Assembly (NCBI RefSeq): GCF_000720175.1 | Contig: NZ_JOIX01000074.1 | Coordinates: forward strand, 1 to 64,000 | Source of the DNA: Streptomyces sp. NRRL S-337 | Lineage (GTDB): Bacteria > Actinomycetota > Actinomycetes > Streptomycetales > Streptomycetaceae | Direction: 5' to 3' | DNA: 64,000 nt | Shown: positions 56,452 to 62,213 of the stretch, in pieces | Position numbering within the stretch: the first letter of the stretch is position 1 | Layout: the number at the start of each line of letters is the position of its first letter | Notes under the pieces: generated by a model | What the model saw: the letters and a program-made list of their open reading frames with translations, nothing else | The model's database searches: none | What the model was told of the DNA's origin: nothing | Made by a program: the position numbers and the translations under genes

Positions 56452-56952
56452 CTACCTCCAGCCGTCCAGCGAGACCTGTTCCCCGTCGGCCAGGTAGTGA
56501 TGAAGAGCGCTGGCGGTGGTGCCGACGAACTCGTCGGGGATGGCATCGGCGTCGACCCAGCACACCTGGTCGTGCTTCCGCGGCTCCCGGTTCTCGGGTT
56601 CGCCGGTCCATTCGTGGGCGGCGAAGACGACGGTGAGGAAGCCGTTGGGGGCCTCGACGCCCCAGGCGCAGTGAATGATGTGGGCGACCTTCAGATCCTC
56701 AGGTTTCACTGTCAGGCCGGTCTCCTCGTACAGCTCGCGTACGGCGGTCTTGGTGATCGGCTCGCCGGGCTCGCTCTTGCCGACGGGGAGGTCCCACATC
56801 CGCTGTGCGAACTTGGCGTTCCGGCTGCGCTGGAGGAGGACGACGCGGTTGGTGGCCGTGTCGTGGACGATGACGGCGGCGACCAGCAGGGTCATGGCTT
56901 CGAGGGCGGGCCTGAGTGCTTCGGGCTGGTCGTCGGTCTTCGGCTGAGCCAC
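56452..56952 (-). CDS. Nudix hydrolase
   Basis: The 166-residue protein has a complete Nudix box, GKSEPGEPITKTAVRELYEETGL, matching GX5EX7REUXEEXGU. It cleaves a nucleoside diphosphate linked to some group X; the substrate is unknown. VLLQRSRNAKFAQRMWDLPVG precedes the box and WVDADAIPDEFVGTTASALHHYL closes the domain. The GTG at 56952 follows AAGGGA. It starts 34 nt behind the XRE/TPR regulator on the same strand, so the two may share a transcript. Confidence 0.9.
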   Translation of the reverse strand: MAQPKTDDQPEALRPALEAMTLLVAAVIVHDTATNRVVLLQRSRNAKFAQRMWDLPVGKSEPGEPITKTAVRELYEETGLTVKPEDLKVAHIIHCAWGVEAPNGFLTVVFAAHEWTGEPENREPRKHDQVCWVDADAIPDEFVGTTASALHHYLADGEQVSLDGWR

Positions 56953-56986
56953 GGTGCATCCCTTCGTCGGCCGGTTGATCGGCAGC

Positions 56987-58348
56987 TTAGGCCAGCGCTT
57001 CTCGTGCGCGGCGGGCGAGTTCGGCGGCGCCCGGCACTTTCCGTCGCTGGTAGATGGCAAGGGTGGACCTGAGCGATGTGATCGCCTTGCGCGTACGGTC
57101 GGAGGTCATCCCTCCCATGAGGCTCAGGGCCTGGGACCAAGAGGCGACGGCTTCGTCGGCACGGGCCTGGGCGGCGAGGCTGTCGCCGAGGTCGGCGTAG
57201 GTGAGGGCGTGGACACGTTTGTACTCCTGAGGATCCCAACGGATGAGGGCATCGCGGTGCTGCTGCTCGGTGCCGAGGTGGTCAGCGAGGTCAGTCAGGG
57301 TGCGGGCGGTGTGGCTGGCGACGGTGCCGGCGGCCGGGCCGCTGACGCGGGAGTAGCTGGGCTGAGGCCCGTCGTCGCGGATGAGGGCATCTTCGGCGGC
57401 GAGGAGGGCGCGCGCTGCAGCGGGCTTCTCACCAATGGCGGCGTATGCGCGGGCGTGAGTGATGTGGAGGAGGGCCTCGGTCCGGCCATCGATGCGGTTG
57501 AGGCCGCGGGTGAGCGCGGCAGCGGCGAGATCGACGCAATGGTGAGGCTGTTTGAGGCTGAGGGCCTGGTGCGCGAGGGCGCGCATCATCCAGGCGGCGT
57601 GACCATATGGGTCGGCTTCGCAGGCGAGTTGGTAGCCGACTTGGTAGTAGCGCTGGGCGGCGCCTTCCTGGCCGAGGTCGTGGTGCTTCCAGCCGGCCAG
57701 ATAGGTGAGTTCGGCGACCGCACCGAAGGCGGCTCGACGTAAGGCGTCGCTGGGGAAACGTCCGCGGAGCATGGGGGCTGCGGTGTCGGCGAGATAGGCA
57801 GTGACGGTGGTCAAGCCGTGACCACCGCCGAGACGTTCGTCGGCCGCGCTGAAGGTGGTGGTGATCTGGCGTACGACATCCACCTCCTCCACGCCAACCA
57901 TGGCCGCTCCGGTGCGTGCGCGGAGCATGCGGGCGGTGGCGTCGTGGTCGTAGGCAAGCGGCATGGCGACGCCCGCGGTGGTGAAGGCGGCTACGGAGAG
58001 GAAGCGGCGGCGCTCCACATCGGCGCGGCCAAGGTCGGTGGCGGCGAGAACCGGGTCGGATTCCCTTTCCGTTGACTCGGGCGCCTCGGATGGGCCCACA
58101 CCGATCTCGGTCCGGGTGATGGTGCGGCCTGCTCGGCGAGACAGTGCCTCGGCGAGGTACTGGCCGGTCCGGCCGGCGGGCTGGCGGGTGCCGTTCACCC
58201 AGTGGGAGATGGCCGACTTGTTGGTCTGGAGGATCTCGCCGTTCTCCGCGGCGACGCGTCGCACGTCCTTGGCCAGGGCCTCGTAGGTGCAGCCGATCGC
58301 GTCGATGGTCTCGCGCAGGCGGGAGTTGGGCGCTTTCTGTTCTGCCAC
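56987..58348 (-). CDS. XRE-family regulator with TPR-like domain
   Basis: The protein has 453 residues. The N-terminal helix-turn-helix (about 5-75) reads LRETIDAIGCTYEALAKDVR and LQTNKSAISHWVNGTRQPAG. A variable linker follows, then a helical repeat domain (about 130-450) with TPR-like pairs (TYLAGWKHHDLGQEGAAQRYY, ALTYADLGDSLAAQARADEAV). Regulators of this build are common in Streptomyces, often beside small accessory and RiPP genes. Being divergent from the small-protein/RiPP genes, it probably controls them. GTG 58348 was chosen because GGAG lies 6 nt upstream; the frame runs on to 58396. Confidence 0.82.
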   Translation of the reverse strand: MAEQKAPNSRLRETIDAIGCTYEALAKDVRRVAAENGEILQTNKSAISHWVNGTRQPAGRTGQYLAEALSRRAGRTITRTEIGVGPSEAPESTERESDPVLAATDLGRADVERRRFLSVAAFTTAGVAMPLAYDHDATARMLRARTGAAMVGVEEVDVVRQITTTFSAADERLGGGHGLTTVTAYLADTAAPMLRGRFPSDALRRAAFGAVAELTYLAGWKHHDLGQEGAAQRYYQVGYQLACEADPYGHAAWMMRALAHQALSLKQPHHCVDLAAAALTRGLNRIDGRTEALLHITHARAYAAIGEKPAAARALLAAEDALIRDDGPQPSYSRVSGPAAGTVASHTARTLTDLADHLGTEQQHRDALIRWDPQEYKRVHALTYADLGDSLAAQARADEAVASWSQALSLMGGMTSDRTRKAITSLRSTLAIYQRRKVPGAAELARRAREALA

Positions 58349-58579
58349 GATCGGCTCCAATCCGGAGCTGTAAACGACGTATACCGCTTCAACCACCTCT
58401 CACCGTACCCACTGTGCGTGACGTCGGGTTCACTAGTCGTCAGCCGCCTGACACGTGCCCAGCGCAGCAACCACCGAGGCTGACGGCGCCCCGGAGGGCT
58501 CGACAGGGCACACGCAGAACCCCCGCGACCGTCCGACCGGCCCGGGGGCATGGCCATCAACTACCAAGGAGTTGACAAC

Positions 58580-59408: not shown

Positions 59409-59693
59409 ATGGCCGCGACCGCTGAGATCGAGAGCGCCACGTCCACTACGCACCTCACCGGCACCCGCCCCTGGGGGGCCGGCCGACTCGCGCCGTATCC
59501 GACCACGTTGCACCGTCCGCACGCCACGGTCACCGTCGACCCCGCCACGCAACTCGGCGTGTTCCGCGACCATGCCGGCCAGGTGGTCGAGATGGGCAAG
59601 CACGGCACCAGCTCCGGCACCGAGACCTCCACGACCACGAACTCGGACTCGCAGAACGACCAGGGCCACGACCAGGACAGCCAGCAGGACTGA
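59409..59693 (+). CDS. tgmA: ATP-grasp-modified RiPP precursor peptide
   Basis: The 94-residue precursor belongs to the putative ATP-grasp-target family (GRASP_targ type). The leader has the family motif RPWGAGRLAPYP (residues 20-31), a VTVDPATQLGVF strand (41-52) and GQVVEMGKHGTSS (57-69). The likely core is residues 65-94: Thr67, Ser68, Ser69, Thr71, Thr73 to Thr77 and Ser79 as hydroxyl donors, and Glu72 with Asp80, 84, 88, 90 and 94 as acid partners. There is no Cys and no Lys in the core, so ester rather than amide links are expected. The stop overlaps the maturase start (TGATG). Ribosome site GAGAAAGGGGG. Confidence 0.85.
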   Translation: MAATAEIESATSTTHLTGTRPWGAGRLAPYPTTLHRPHATVTVDPATQLGVFRDHAGQVVEMGKHGTSSGTETSTTTNSDSQNDQGHDQDSQQD

Positions 59694-60661
59694 TGCCTGC
59701 GAACGAGGAGAGGCCGGTACTGGTGGCCACCGAGGCGGACGATGTCACCGCCGACATGGTGATCACCCAACTCAACCGGCGAAACGTGCCGGTGGTCAGG
59801 TTCAACCCCGGTGACTTCGGCGGATGCCTGACGGTCTCGGCCCGGTTCGGCGCCGGCCCGGCCCCAGTGGCCGGGCAGGTGCGTACCCTGTCGAGAACCG
59901 TCGACCTGGATCACGTGCGAGCGGTGTACTGGCGCCGCCCAGCCTGGCCCGACTTCCCGTACTTGAGCGACGACGATGCGCGGTTCGCCGCCGCGCAAGT
60001 GCGCTATGGGCTCGGCGGTGCCCTTTTCGCCCTCGAAGGCCCGCTATGGGTCAATCATCCCCTTCGTAACGCAGCGGCCGACTACAAGCCTGCTCAACTC
60101 GCTGTCGCCCAGCGGCTTGGCCTCACAGTGCCGTCGACCCTTGTGACCAATGACCCGGATGAAGCACGGGAGTTCATCGCCGCACACGGGCAGGTGATCT
60201 ACAAGACTCTGCGGTGGACCTCGTACAAGCGAGACGGAGTTCCGGTTACCGGGTGGGCAGACCCGGTCACCGCCGCGGAGATCGATGACAGCGTGCGCGT
60301 GACACCGCACCTGTTCCAAGCCCGCGTGGACAAGGTCGCCGACGTGCGAGTGCTGGTGGTCGGCGAGCGAGCGTTCTCCGTGCGGATCGACTCCGACCTC
60401 CTGGACTGGCGCAAGGACTACTCCGCCCTCTCCTACAGCGTGGTAGACCTGCCGGACCACGTGGACAAGGCGCTCCTTGCCTACTTGGACCGCTTCGGGC
60501 TGGTGTCCGGGAGCTTCGACCTCGCCGTCGACCGGGCGGGTGACTACTGGTGGTTGGAGCTGAATCCGAACGGCCAATGGGGGTGGCTGGAAGAGAAGAC
60601 CGGCCTGGAAATGTCCGCCACATTCGCCGACCTGCTGACCCGAGGAGAGCCCGCCCCATGA
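59693..60661 (+). CDS. tgmB: ATP-grasp ribosomal peptide maturase
   Basis: The 322-residue protein belongs to the SAV_5884-type maturase family. The pre-grasp part has VLVATEADDVTADMVITQLN, YWRRPAWPDFP and LWVNHPLRNAAADYKPAQL. The ATP-grasp fold has VIYKTLRW (ATP lysine), HLFQARVDKVADVRVLVVG and the metal-binding WWLELNPNGQWGWLE. Such enzymes activate Asp/Glu side chains with ATP so that Thr/Ser/Lys of the precursor close macrolactones or macrolactams. Overlaps the precursor by 1 nt and the methyltransferase by 4 nt. Confidence 0.92.
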   Translation: MPANEERPVLVATEADDVTADMVITQLNRRNVPVVRFNPGDFGGCLTVSARFGAGPAPVAGQVRTLSRTVDLDHVRAVYWRRPAWPDFPYLSDDDARFAAAQVRYGLGGALFALEGPLWVNHPLRNAAADYKPAQLAVAQRLGLTVPSTLVTNDPDEAREFIAAHGQVIYKTLRWTSYKRDGVPVTGWADPVTAAEIDDSVRVTPHLFQARVDKVADVRVLVVGERAFSVRIDSDLLDWRKDYSALSYSVVDLPDHVDKALLAYLDRFGLVSGSFDLAVDRAGDYWWLELNPNGQWGWLEEKTGLEMSATFADLLTRGEPAP

Positions 60662-61824
60662 CGGAAACCGCGCCCGAGCGACGTGCCCTTGCCGACCGGC
60701 TGGAGAAGGCCGGTGTCCTCTCGATCCCCCAATGGCGGGCGGCGGTCGAGGCCGTACCGCGTGAGCTGTTCTTGAACCCCGGGGTCTTCCTGCCCGTGGA
60801 CGGTGGCCGCTGGCAACCGGTCACAGCGGTGGGAGCCAACCCGGCGGAGTGGGCGAAGATCGCCTACAGCGACCAGTCCCTTACCACTCAGCTCGATGGT
60901 CACCTCACCGCCGACCAGGCCGCTGACCTCGTGACAGGTGTGCCCACGTCCTCGTCCACCACGCCCGTCACCGTGGTCGGCATGATCGAGAGCCTGGACG
61001 TGGAAGACGGGCACCAGGTGCTGGAGATCGGCACCGGCACCGGTTACTCCTCGGCCCTGATGTGCCACCGCCTCGGCGAAGACAACGTCACCACGGTCGA
61101 GGTGGACCCCGACGTGGCGGCCCGCGCGGACGCCGCGCTGGAAGCAGCCGGGTTCTCGACATGGACCGTGACGGGGGACGGGCTCCTGGGGCACCCCCGC
61201 CGCGCCCCGTACGACCGGGTGATTGCCACCTGTGCCGTACGCCGCATCCCCCACACCTGGATCCGGCAGACGAAGCCGGGCGGCATCATCCTCGCGACCC
61301 TTGGCTCCTGGCCCTACGGCACGGGTCTGGCAAAGGTGACCGTGGGCGAAGACGGGACCGCCGAGGGCCGGATCATCGGCCGCTCCTCGTTCATGCAGGC
61401 TCGGGCGCAAGCCGTGGTCCCGCCGGCCGGCGACCTGTCCGCACGCACGGCCTTCCCCGACAGCGAGCGCGCGGTGAAGGTAGCGCCGGTCATGCTGGCG
61501 GAGTGGATGCCCGCCTTCCTCGCCCAGCTTGCCGCGCCCGGCGCACACCTCGTTCGCGCCTCGACGCGCGAAGGACCAGAGCTCCTGTACCTCTTCCACC
61601 CGGAGCGCGAGTCCTTCGCACAATTCACGTCCGACGGCGAGGGCTGGACCGTCCGCCAGGGCGGCCCGGTGGCCCTGTGGGACGACATCGAGCAGGCCCT
61701 CACCGCATGGCAGGACACGGGAAGCCCCGACATCACCGCCGTACAGCTCCAGATCGACAGCAAGGCCCACACTTATTGGATCGAGGACAGCCCGTCGCTG
61801 CGCTGGCACCACCGCCTCGCATGA
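60658..61824 (+). CDS. tgmC: PIMT-like methyltransferase of the ATP-grasp RiPP system
   Basis: The 388-residue protein has an L-isoaspartyl methyltransferase (PCMT) fold: SLTTQLDGH near the substrate site, VLEIGTGTGYSSALMCHRLG for S-adenosylmethionine, VEVDPDVAARADAAL, and YDRVIATCAVRRIPHTWIRQ. An extra C-terminal domain of about 170 residues (after ILATLGSWPYG) is typical of the RiPP-linked type. In characterised PIMT-containing graspetides (such as fuscimiditide) the homologue methylates an Asp of the ester-crosslinked peptide, giving an aspartimide. The same is inferred here. Its ATGA start overlaps the maturase stop. Confidence 0.9.
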   Translation: MTETAPERRALADRLEKAGVLSIPQWRAAVEAVPRELFLNPGVFLPVDGGRWQPVTAVGANPAEWAKIAYSDQSLTTQLDGHLTADQAADLVTGVPTSSSTTPVTVVGMIESLDVEDGHQVLEIGTGTGYSSALMCHRLGEDNVTTVEVDPDVAARADAALEAAGFSTWTVTGDGLLGHPRRAPYDRVIATCAVRRIPHTWIRQTKPGGIILATLGSWPYGTGLAKVTVGEDGTAEGRIIGRSSFMQARAQAVVPPAGDLSARTAFPDSERAVKVAPVMLAEWMPAFLAQLAAPGAHLVRASTREGPELLYLFHPERESFAQFTSDGEGWTVRQGGPVALWDDIEQALTAWQDTGSPDITAVQLQIDSKAHTYWIEDSPSLRWHHRLA

Positions 61825-61907: not shown

Positions 61908-62213
61908 ATGGACGACGAACCGTTGTCGGAATGGGCGGAGCGCCGTTACGCGAAGGTCGGACGGCTCCGCGCAATTCCCCTCGTCACCGGTGACGGCCCC
62001 AGAGGCGCGCATCTGAACCCGGATGCACCCCGTGTCATCCAGCGATGGAACGGATACTCCTGGGAACCCCACGGTTTCGCGTCCAACCTCGCCGAGGCGA
62101 AACGGATCCTGTACCCCGAGGTCATCGAGTCCCCGGCCCCGGGGTCTGCGCCCAAGCTCGGCGCAGGCACCGGCAAGCACCGTAAGCCCCGGGCGCCAAG
62201 GTCGGAGCGCTAG
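61908..62213 (+). CDS. DUF6087 family small protein
   Basis: The 101-residue protein matches the Streptomyces DUF6087 family: EPLSEWAERRYAKVGRLRA, GAHLNPDAPRVIQRWNGYSWEPHG and ASNLAEAKRILYPEV, with a basic tail (GKHRKPRAPRSER). Function is unknown. It lies 83 nt after the methyltransferase and is the last gene of the inserted island. GTGCGAGATG holds the start; a purine-rich GGATGCGAGAGG lies just before. Confidence 0.75.
   Translation: MDDEPLSEWAERRYAKVGRLRAIPLVTGDGPRGAHLNPDAPRVIQRWNGYSWEPHGFASNLAEAKRILYPEVIESPAPGSAPKLGAGTGKHRKPRAPRSER

What the first reader, a model, noticed from the sequence alone, without database searches (positions are those of the whole stretch)
59409..61824. Complete ATP-grasp RiPP cassette with PIMT-like methyltransferase (aspartimidylated graspetide candidate)
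Three tightly coupled genes (1-nt and 4-nt overlaps) encode a 94-aa precursor, an ATP-grasp maturase and a PCMT-fold methyltransferase. The core (residues 65-94) is almost only Thr, Ser, Asn, Gln, Gly, His and Asp with a single Glu, unlike the strict TxxE-type repeats of microviridin-class graspetides. The order suggests several Thr/Ser clusters first (67-79), then five regularly spaced Asp (80, 84, 88, 90, 94), as if folded into a hairpin by ester links. The PIMT partner predicts a final methyl ester or aspartimide. No protease or exporter is obvious in the cassette, so leader removal may be provided by other genes.
Basis: partly seen in the sequence, partly recalled or inferred. Interest (0 to 1): 0.85.

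Follow-up and report, generated by a model that had tools for sequence, protein, structure and literature searches.

The report
Streptomyces ester-stapled aspartimide peptide cassette
Three overlapping Streptomyces genes make a small peptide that is probably stapled into a hairpin by ester bonds and then given an unusual reactive ring on one aspartate; it belongs to a known family, and comparing its relatives suggests which residues are stapled to which.

Summary
All three score above the curated cut-offs of the NCBIfam models for this system (TIGR04186, TIGR04187, TIGR04188). A review cites surveys of 962, 1326 and 1432 such clusters.

This work adds a prediction of the cross-links. Thr67/71/73/77 mirror Asp94/90/88/84 with a constant sum of positions (161), so four nested esters are expected, with Asp80 in the loop as methylation site. 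The mirror holds in two other core classes with different spacings: the Thr arm changes with the Asp arm. It agrees with the published fuscimiditide links. A fourth class (18 cores) does not fit. For SsfA-like precursors the rule proposes a connectivity, including the fifth link to the C-terminus, that the original authors could not resolve.

The window's class has Ser, not Gly, after the loop Asp, and a short predicted loop. New member of a known kind; modest interest.

The parts
59409..59693 (+). Precursor peptide gene (TgmA-type, 94 aa)
   Evidence: TIGR04186 96.1 bits against cut-off 25; PF14408 85.1 against 25
59466..59477 (+). Leader residues 20-23, RPWG, the place of the RPFG recognition motif reported for fuscimiditide
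   Evidence: sequence; motif from a passage of PMC13003496
59601..59690 (+). Core residues 65-94; predicted rungs T77-D84, T73-D88, T71-D90, T67-D94 (inferred)
   Evidence: conservation and arm comparison
59646..59648 (+). Codon of Asp80, predicted loop Asp that is methylated and forms the aspartimide (inferred)
   Evidence: invariant in 114 of 114 His-Gly cores; relatives such as L032, L034 and L038 have Asp-Gly here
59693..60661 (+). ATP-grasp ligase (322 aa), ester-forming enzyme
   Evidence: TIGR04187 423.3 bits against cut-off 350; overlaps precursor by 1 nt
60658..61824 (+). PIMT-like O-methyltransferase (388 aa) with C-terminal domain and WXXXGXP motif at 351-357
   Evidence: TIGR04188 491.4 bits against cut-off 380; PCMT domain; motif columns; model
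61908..62213 (+). DUF6087 gene (101 aa), occasional neighbour, role unknown; not claimed as part of the pathway
   Evidence: PF19565 118.1 bits against 27.1; found beside 19 of 58 relative cassettes

Best explanation
This is a graspimiditide (group 13 graspetide) cassette. The ATP-grasp enzyme binds the leader, probably through RPWG, and uses ATP to join Thr hydroxyls to Asp side chains. It likely starts at the loop and works outward: T77-D84, then T73-D88, T71-D90 and T67-D94, giving a four-rung antiparallel hairpin. The methyltransferase then recognises the cross-linked hairpin and methylates loop Asp80. The methyl ester closes to an aspartimide with the Ser81 nitrogen, which may open later, mainly to isoaspartate. 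The leader is removed by a protease encoded elsewhere. Shown here: the genes, their families, their conservation and the mirrored spacing. Inferred from studied relatives: the chemistry, the order of steps and Asp80 as target. Inferred from spacing: the exact connectivity. My odds: cassette type 0.95; Asp80 as site 0.8; the four-rung connectivity 0.65.
For: All three proteins pass the curated cut-offs for this system. The three genes co-occur in relatives: precursor match 56, methyltransferase match 55 of 58. Core Thr and Asp are conserved. Arm mirroring beats shuffled arms in classes A, C and D, and each of these Thr arms fits its own Asp arm better than those of the other four-Asp classes. 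Published fuscimiditide links have a constant sum. Published SsfA work shows esters, +14, -32 and +18 Da steps and modification at a loop Asp by the homologous enzyme set. Amycolimiditide (29 aa, four esters) is closed in order from the loop outward (passage).
Against: Class G (18 cores) scores 1.83 of 4, no better than shuffled arms at 1.88. The five-Asp pattern 0,4,6,8,10 (5 cores) scores 3.20 of 5 against 2.16, reached by 26% of shuffles, although class-A Thr arms would fit that Asp arm at 4.99 of 5. Thr75 is invariant too but has no partner in the model. The predicted loop of 6 residues is shorter than the 10-12 aa stated for the group. Ser follows Asp80, whereas the four characterised members have Gly. 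Nothing chemical was measured.
Confidence: 0.85

Rival explanations
1. Same chemistry, shifted register: three esters T77-D88, T75-D90 and T71-D94 (sum 165), leaving a 10-residue loop that holds both Asp80 and Asp84.
For: It gives the 10-residue loop reported for fuscimiditide and amycolimiditide and uses the invariant Thr75.
Against: It leaves Thr67, Thr73 and Asp84 unexplained although all are kept. It is not the best register for class A, where 138 of 140 cores reach 4 of 4 with Thr only. Class C, with a 6-residue loop by the same reading, keeps the mirror at another spacing.
Confidence: 0.15
2. Five esters, the fifth using the C-terminal carboxylate, as postulated for SsfA.
For: SsfA has five esters with only four Asp in its last 12 residues; the window peptide also has four Asp and no Glu there.
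Against: In class D a Thr (68) lies opposite the chain end; in class A the matching place is Gly66. The window peptide ends in Asp94, itself a predicted partner.
Confidence: 0.1
3. The methyltransferase is an ordinary isoaspartate repair enzyme that merely lies next to a graspetide pair.
For: It has the PCMT domain and the PIMT fold.
Against: It scores below the repair-enzyme cut-offs (96.7 of 188, 95.8 of 282, 79 of 159.05) and above TIGR04188. It overlaps the ATP-grasp gene by 4 nt, is matched in 55 of 58 loci, and has the WXXXGXP motif of RiPP PIMTs.
Confidence: 0.03

Closest known systems
SsfA(BM), Streptomyces sp. F-3 (PMC10787088, section 2.1 read)
   Same: Same three genes; four Asp and no Glu in the last 12 residues; methylated loop Asp three residues after the inner Thr (by my class D reading).
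   Different: 97 aa, five esters, Asp-Gly site, Asp arm spaced 2,4,2 rather than 4,2,4, ends in Gln. SsfA's own sequence was not retrieved.
Amycolimiditide, Amycolatopsis cihanbeyliensis (passages of PMC13003496 and PMC12291112)
   Different: Native loop of 10 aa; Asp-Gly site. Its sequence and links were not seen here.
Fuscimiditide, Thermobifida fusca (passages of PMC12291112 and PMC13003496)
   Same: Founding graspimiditide; its links Thr3-Asp22 and Thr7-Asp18 obey the same constant-sum rule; RPFG leader motif, here RPWG.
   Different: Two esters and a 10-residue loop.
Albusimiditide, Streptomyces albus J1074 (source paper not held; named in PMC13001092)
   Same: Streptomyces graspimiditide, stem-loop of Thr-Asp esters. 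From recall: four esters, and the largest sequence cluster.
   Different: Asp-Gly site. Sequence not seen, so whether it shares the window's class is unknown.
Microviridin-type graspetides (MvdC and MvdD maturases)
   Same: ATP-grasp ligase making side-chain links.
   Different: Maturase far below MvdC and MvdD cut-offs; microviridins lack this methyltransferase partner (recall) and are staggered, not nested (passage).

Membership tests
Group 13 graspetides / graspimiditides | ATP-grasp ribosomal peptide maturase of this subfamily | tested here: met
   TIGR04187 423.3 bits, cut-off 350
Group 13 graspetides / graspimiditides | Dedicated precursor with leader and C-terminal Thr/Asp core | tested here: met
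   TIGR04186 96.1 bits, cut-off 25; core
Group 13 graspetides / graspimiditides | Adjacent PIMT-like methyltransferase with extra C-terminal domain and WXXXGXP motif | tested here: met
   TIGR04188 491.4 bits, cut-off 380; W351 and P357 invariant, G355 at 90% or more in 28 sequences; 388 aa with PCMT domain at 99-217
Group 13 graspetides / graspimiditides | Thr-Asp ester cross-links forming a stem-loop | not testable with these tools
   Needs mass spectrometry; the mirrored spacing is only indirect
Group 13 graspetides / graspimiditides | Methylation and aspartimide at a loop Asp | not testable with these tools
   Asp80 is invariant; chemistry not measured
Microviridins | MvdC or MvdD maturase | tested here: not met
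   TIGR04185 162.1 of 425 and TIGR04184 143.1 of 475 bits
Canonical PIMT repair enzymes | Score above the repair-enzyme models | tested here: not met
   NF001453 96.7 of 188, NF010549 95.8 of 282, TIGR00080 79 of 159.05

The most novel reading that the evidence does not exclude
Graspimiditide precursors carry a readable hairpin code: ester partners lie at a constant sum of positions, with even spacings, so the rungs point to one face. The Thr arm and Asp arm co-vary between core classes A, C and D. For SsfA-like precursors the code gives T78-D88, T76-D90, T72-D94, T70-D96 and a fifth Thr68-to-C-terminus link, where connectivity was reported as unresolved. Class A would add an 8-residue loop ring with an Asp-Ser aspartimide site, unlike the four characterised members. 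One class (G) does not follow the code as scored.
Probability: 0.6. Interest if true: 0.5.

Novelty: new member of a known kind. Interest (0 to 1): 0.33.

Why it matters
Family, gene order and chemistry are known, so the cassette itself is ordinary. It is a good test case for two points: whether connectivity can be read from sequence by the mirror rule, and whether an aspartimide forms at Asp-Ser in a short loop. The role of the aspartimide is described as largely unknown (PMC10787088 passage) and the leader protease as undetermined; this work settles neither.

Tried and rejected
RimK family PF08443 in the own genome hit three other places, not this cassette. A PDB sequence search with the precursor gave two weak, unrelated hits; two typed core peptides gave none, so the deposited fuscimiditide and amycolimiditide chains were not reached. 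The source papers for albusimiditide, the group 13 survey and amycolimiditide are not held.

A search for co-conserved neighbours used crude ORF calling. It recovered a methyltransferase cluster in only 33 loci, although tblastn finds it in 55 of 58, and a mixed cluster around the precursor in 43. The four remaining clusters (8-15 loci) looked like wrong-frame ORFs and were not pursued. It shows no protease or exporter, but its sensitivity is low. The upstream genes (Nudix, NsdA-type regulator, two small ORFs) and thymidine phosphorylase downstream were matched in 0, 1, 1, 2 and 1 of 58 loci within the flanks held, so I do not count them as part of the unit.

Against the mirror rule: class G (18 cores, Asp at 0,4,8,9 from the end) scores 1.83 of 4 with Thr only against 1.88 for shuffled arms; with Ser allowed, 17 of 18 reach 3 and 1 reaches 2 of 4. 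Class C reaches 4 of 4 with Thr only in 5 of 16, and in 16 of 16 when Ser is allowed. Pattern 1,3,7,9,12 (7 cores) scores 3.00 of 5 against 2.50, and pattern 0,4,6,8,10 (5 cores) 3.20 of 5 against 2.16. Several single-core patterns are not distinguishable from shuffles.

Limits of the counts: the profile used was built from the 120 class-A-like proteins, so sampling leans to class A. The 100 stretches fetched and the loci were the better-scoring matches, not a random sample. The 101 cores were selected by His-Gly and by Asp at 84, 88, 90 and 94, so those columns are invariant by choice; one search repeats the count without choosing on Asp. The 58 proteins were selected by length 97 and an Asp-Gln end. 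Rows dropped before the arm test: L016 and L059. No precursor was found by the profile in L001-L003, L049, L058, L061, L063, L065, L066, L183, L187, L189, L192 and L195.

Full report
CHECK. The precursor is 94 aa with RPWG at 20-23 and the core from His65; the core has one Glu and Asp at 80, 84, 88, 90 and 94. NCBIfam gives TIGR04186 at 96.1 bits (cut-off 25), TIGR04187 at 423.3 (350) and TIGR04188 at 491.4 (380). Pfam adds PF14408 and PCMT.

RELATIVES. A scan of public genomes with the ATP-grasp protein gave 58 loci, 54 of them named Streptomyces. A precursor match is present in 56 and a methyltransferase match in 55 of 58. In the genus, 214 of 295 sampled genomes have a TIGR04186 match; this includes other precursor types, such as a second one in this genome. 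A class-A DNA motif (DQGHDQD) occurs in 16 of 150 genomes, 13 of the 16 inside TIGR04186 matches listed; the pattern read backwards hits 2 of 150. The cassette is therefore not rare.

CORE CONSERVATION. Of the best 120 precursor relatives listed (227 found), 114 have a 30-residue core starting His-Gly. In these, Thr67, 71, 75 and 77, Asp80, 84, 88, 90 and 94, Ser81 and Gln89 are invariant, and Thr73 and Gly86 are kept in 113. In a wider set of 101 distinct class-A cores, chosen by their Asp pattern, Thr67 and Thr73 are kept in 100, Thr71, 75, 77, Asp80 and Ser81 in 101, while position 76 varies. In 45 loci, 15 of 30 core codon columns vary without changing the residue.

MIRROR RULE. The spacing Thr67-71-73-77 (4, 2, 4) mirrors Asp84-88-90-94 (4, 2, 4): 67+94 = 71+90 = 73+88 = 77+84 = 161. 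The arm is Thr-rich, so one sequence proves little, and I compared core classes. Over 234 distinct cores, with 200 shuffles of the Thr arm each, class A (140 cores) scores 3.99 of 4 with Thr only against 2.37 (2.4% of shuffles reach it). Class D (26) scores 3.85 against 2.31 (4.1%), class C (16) 3.31 against 2.14 (9.7%), and class G (18) 1.83 against 1.88 (84%), a failure. When arms of different classes are swapped, the own Asp arm fits best among the four-Asp classes for A (3.98; others 3.03, 3.04, 3.65), C (3.32; others 3.06, 3.17, 3.00) and D (3.86; others 3.00 each), but not for G (1.77; others 2.78, 2.08, 2.74). Asp arms with five Asp give higher totals with several Thr arms, as they offer more chances. 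Allowing Ser, all 140, 16 and 26 cores of A, C and D reach 4 of 4. Cores within a class are related, so these are not independent counts; the comparison between classes carries the weight.

AGREEMENT WITH PUBLISHED DATA. Fuscimiditide links Thr3-Asp22 and Thr7-Asp18 sum to 25 (passages of PMC12291112, and PMC13003496). SsfA has Asp81-Gly82, Asn83, Gly77-Thr78 and Ser89, a GluC fragment 63-97, and four Asp with no Glu in its last 12 residues; five esters were found but connectivity was not resolved (PMC10787088 section 2.1). These numbers fit class D precursors: 34 of 110 proteins found with a class D query meet all of them. In 58 proteins of 97 residues ending Asp-Gln, Thr68, 70, 72, 76 and 78 are present in 53-55, and Asp88, 90 and 94 in all 58 (Asp96 by selection). 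The rule then gives T78-D88, T76-D90, T72-D94, T70-D96, and places Thr68 opposite the chain end, where a fifth, C-terminal ester was postulated. That SsfA is class D is inferred; its own sequence was not retrieved.

METHYLATION SITE. In class A, Asp80 is the third residue after the predicted inner Thr77, as Asp81 is after Thr78 in class D. Several relatives with longer loops (L032, L034, L038, L052, L056) have Asp-Gly at this place; L082 has Asp-Asn. The four characterised graspimiditides have Gly there, and the review lists Ser among residues predicted from core motifs. The predicted loop of 6 residues is shorter than the 10-12 aa stated for the group; class C has the same length with Asp-Gly.

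METHYLTRANSFERASE. An AlphaFold2 model (28 sequences, mean pLDDT 77.6, pTM 0.61) best matches 1DL5, a PIMT with a C-terminal domain (E 2.2e-16, but TM 0.48/0.58 and rmsd 13.1, so the two domains are not superposed together); the PIMT part fits 1JG1 well (TM 0.85 by target). The RiPP-PIMT motif WXXXGXP is present as W351-G355-P357; W and P are invariant and G is at 90% or more in 28 sequences. Scores against repair-enzyme models are below their cut-offs.

VERDICT. Its added value is the mirror rule and the connectivity predictions. Nested stem-loops are published for this group; I found no statement of a constant-sum rule across classes in the passages and sections I saw of PMC13001092, PMC10787088, PMC12291112 and PMC13003496, nor in the listings. 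The albusimiditide survey, where it could be, is not held.

Noticed in passing
61908-62213: A DUF6087 gene follows the cassette. A DUF6087 match lies beside 19 of 58 relative cassettes. In a genus sample 43 of 121 genomes carry the family; of 30 such loci read, the window's own included, 11 have a matching methyltransferase next to them and 19 do not. The term DUF6087 gave no paper in the held library. It may be an accessory gene.
   Followed up: partly
L066, G000:C1:110480-111604: The genome holds a second precursor and ATP-grasp pair (TIGR04186 52.7 bits, TIGR04187 374.4 bits) with a different, short core ending FDD. Whether a methyltransferase belongs to it was not tested with its model.
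   Followed up: partly
L016 (Streptomyces nigrescens HEK616): The closest relative has a broken copy: the precursor lacks its core and the ATP-grasp match begins only at residue 61, as after a deletion.
   Followed up: no
L045 (Amycolatopsis rhizosphaerae): A related ATP-grasp (68% identity) with an Asp-rich core and no methyltransferase match in the locus: a possible version without aspartimide.
   Followed up: partly
56452-58396, - strand: A Nudix hydrolase gene overlaps an NsdA-family TPR regulator gene upstream of the cassette; among the 58 relative loci one had an NsdA match (32%) and none a Nudix match.
   Followed up: no
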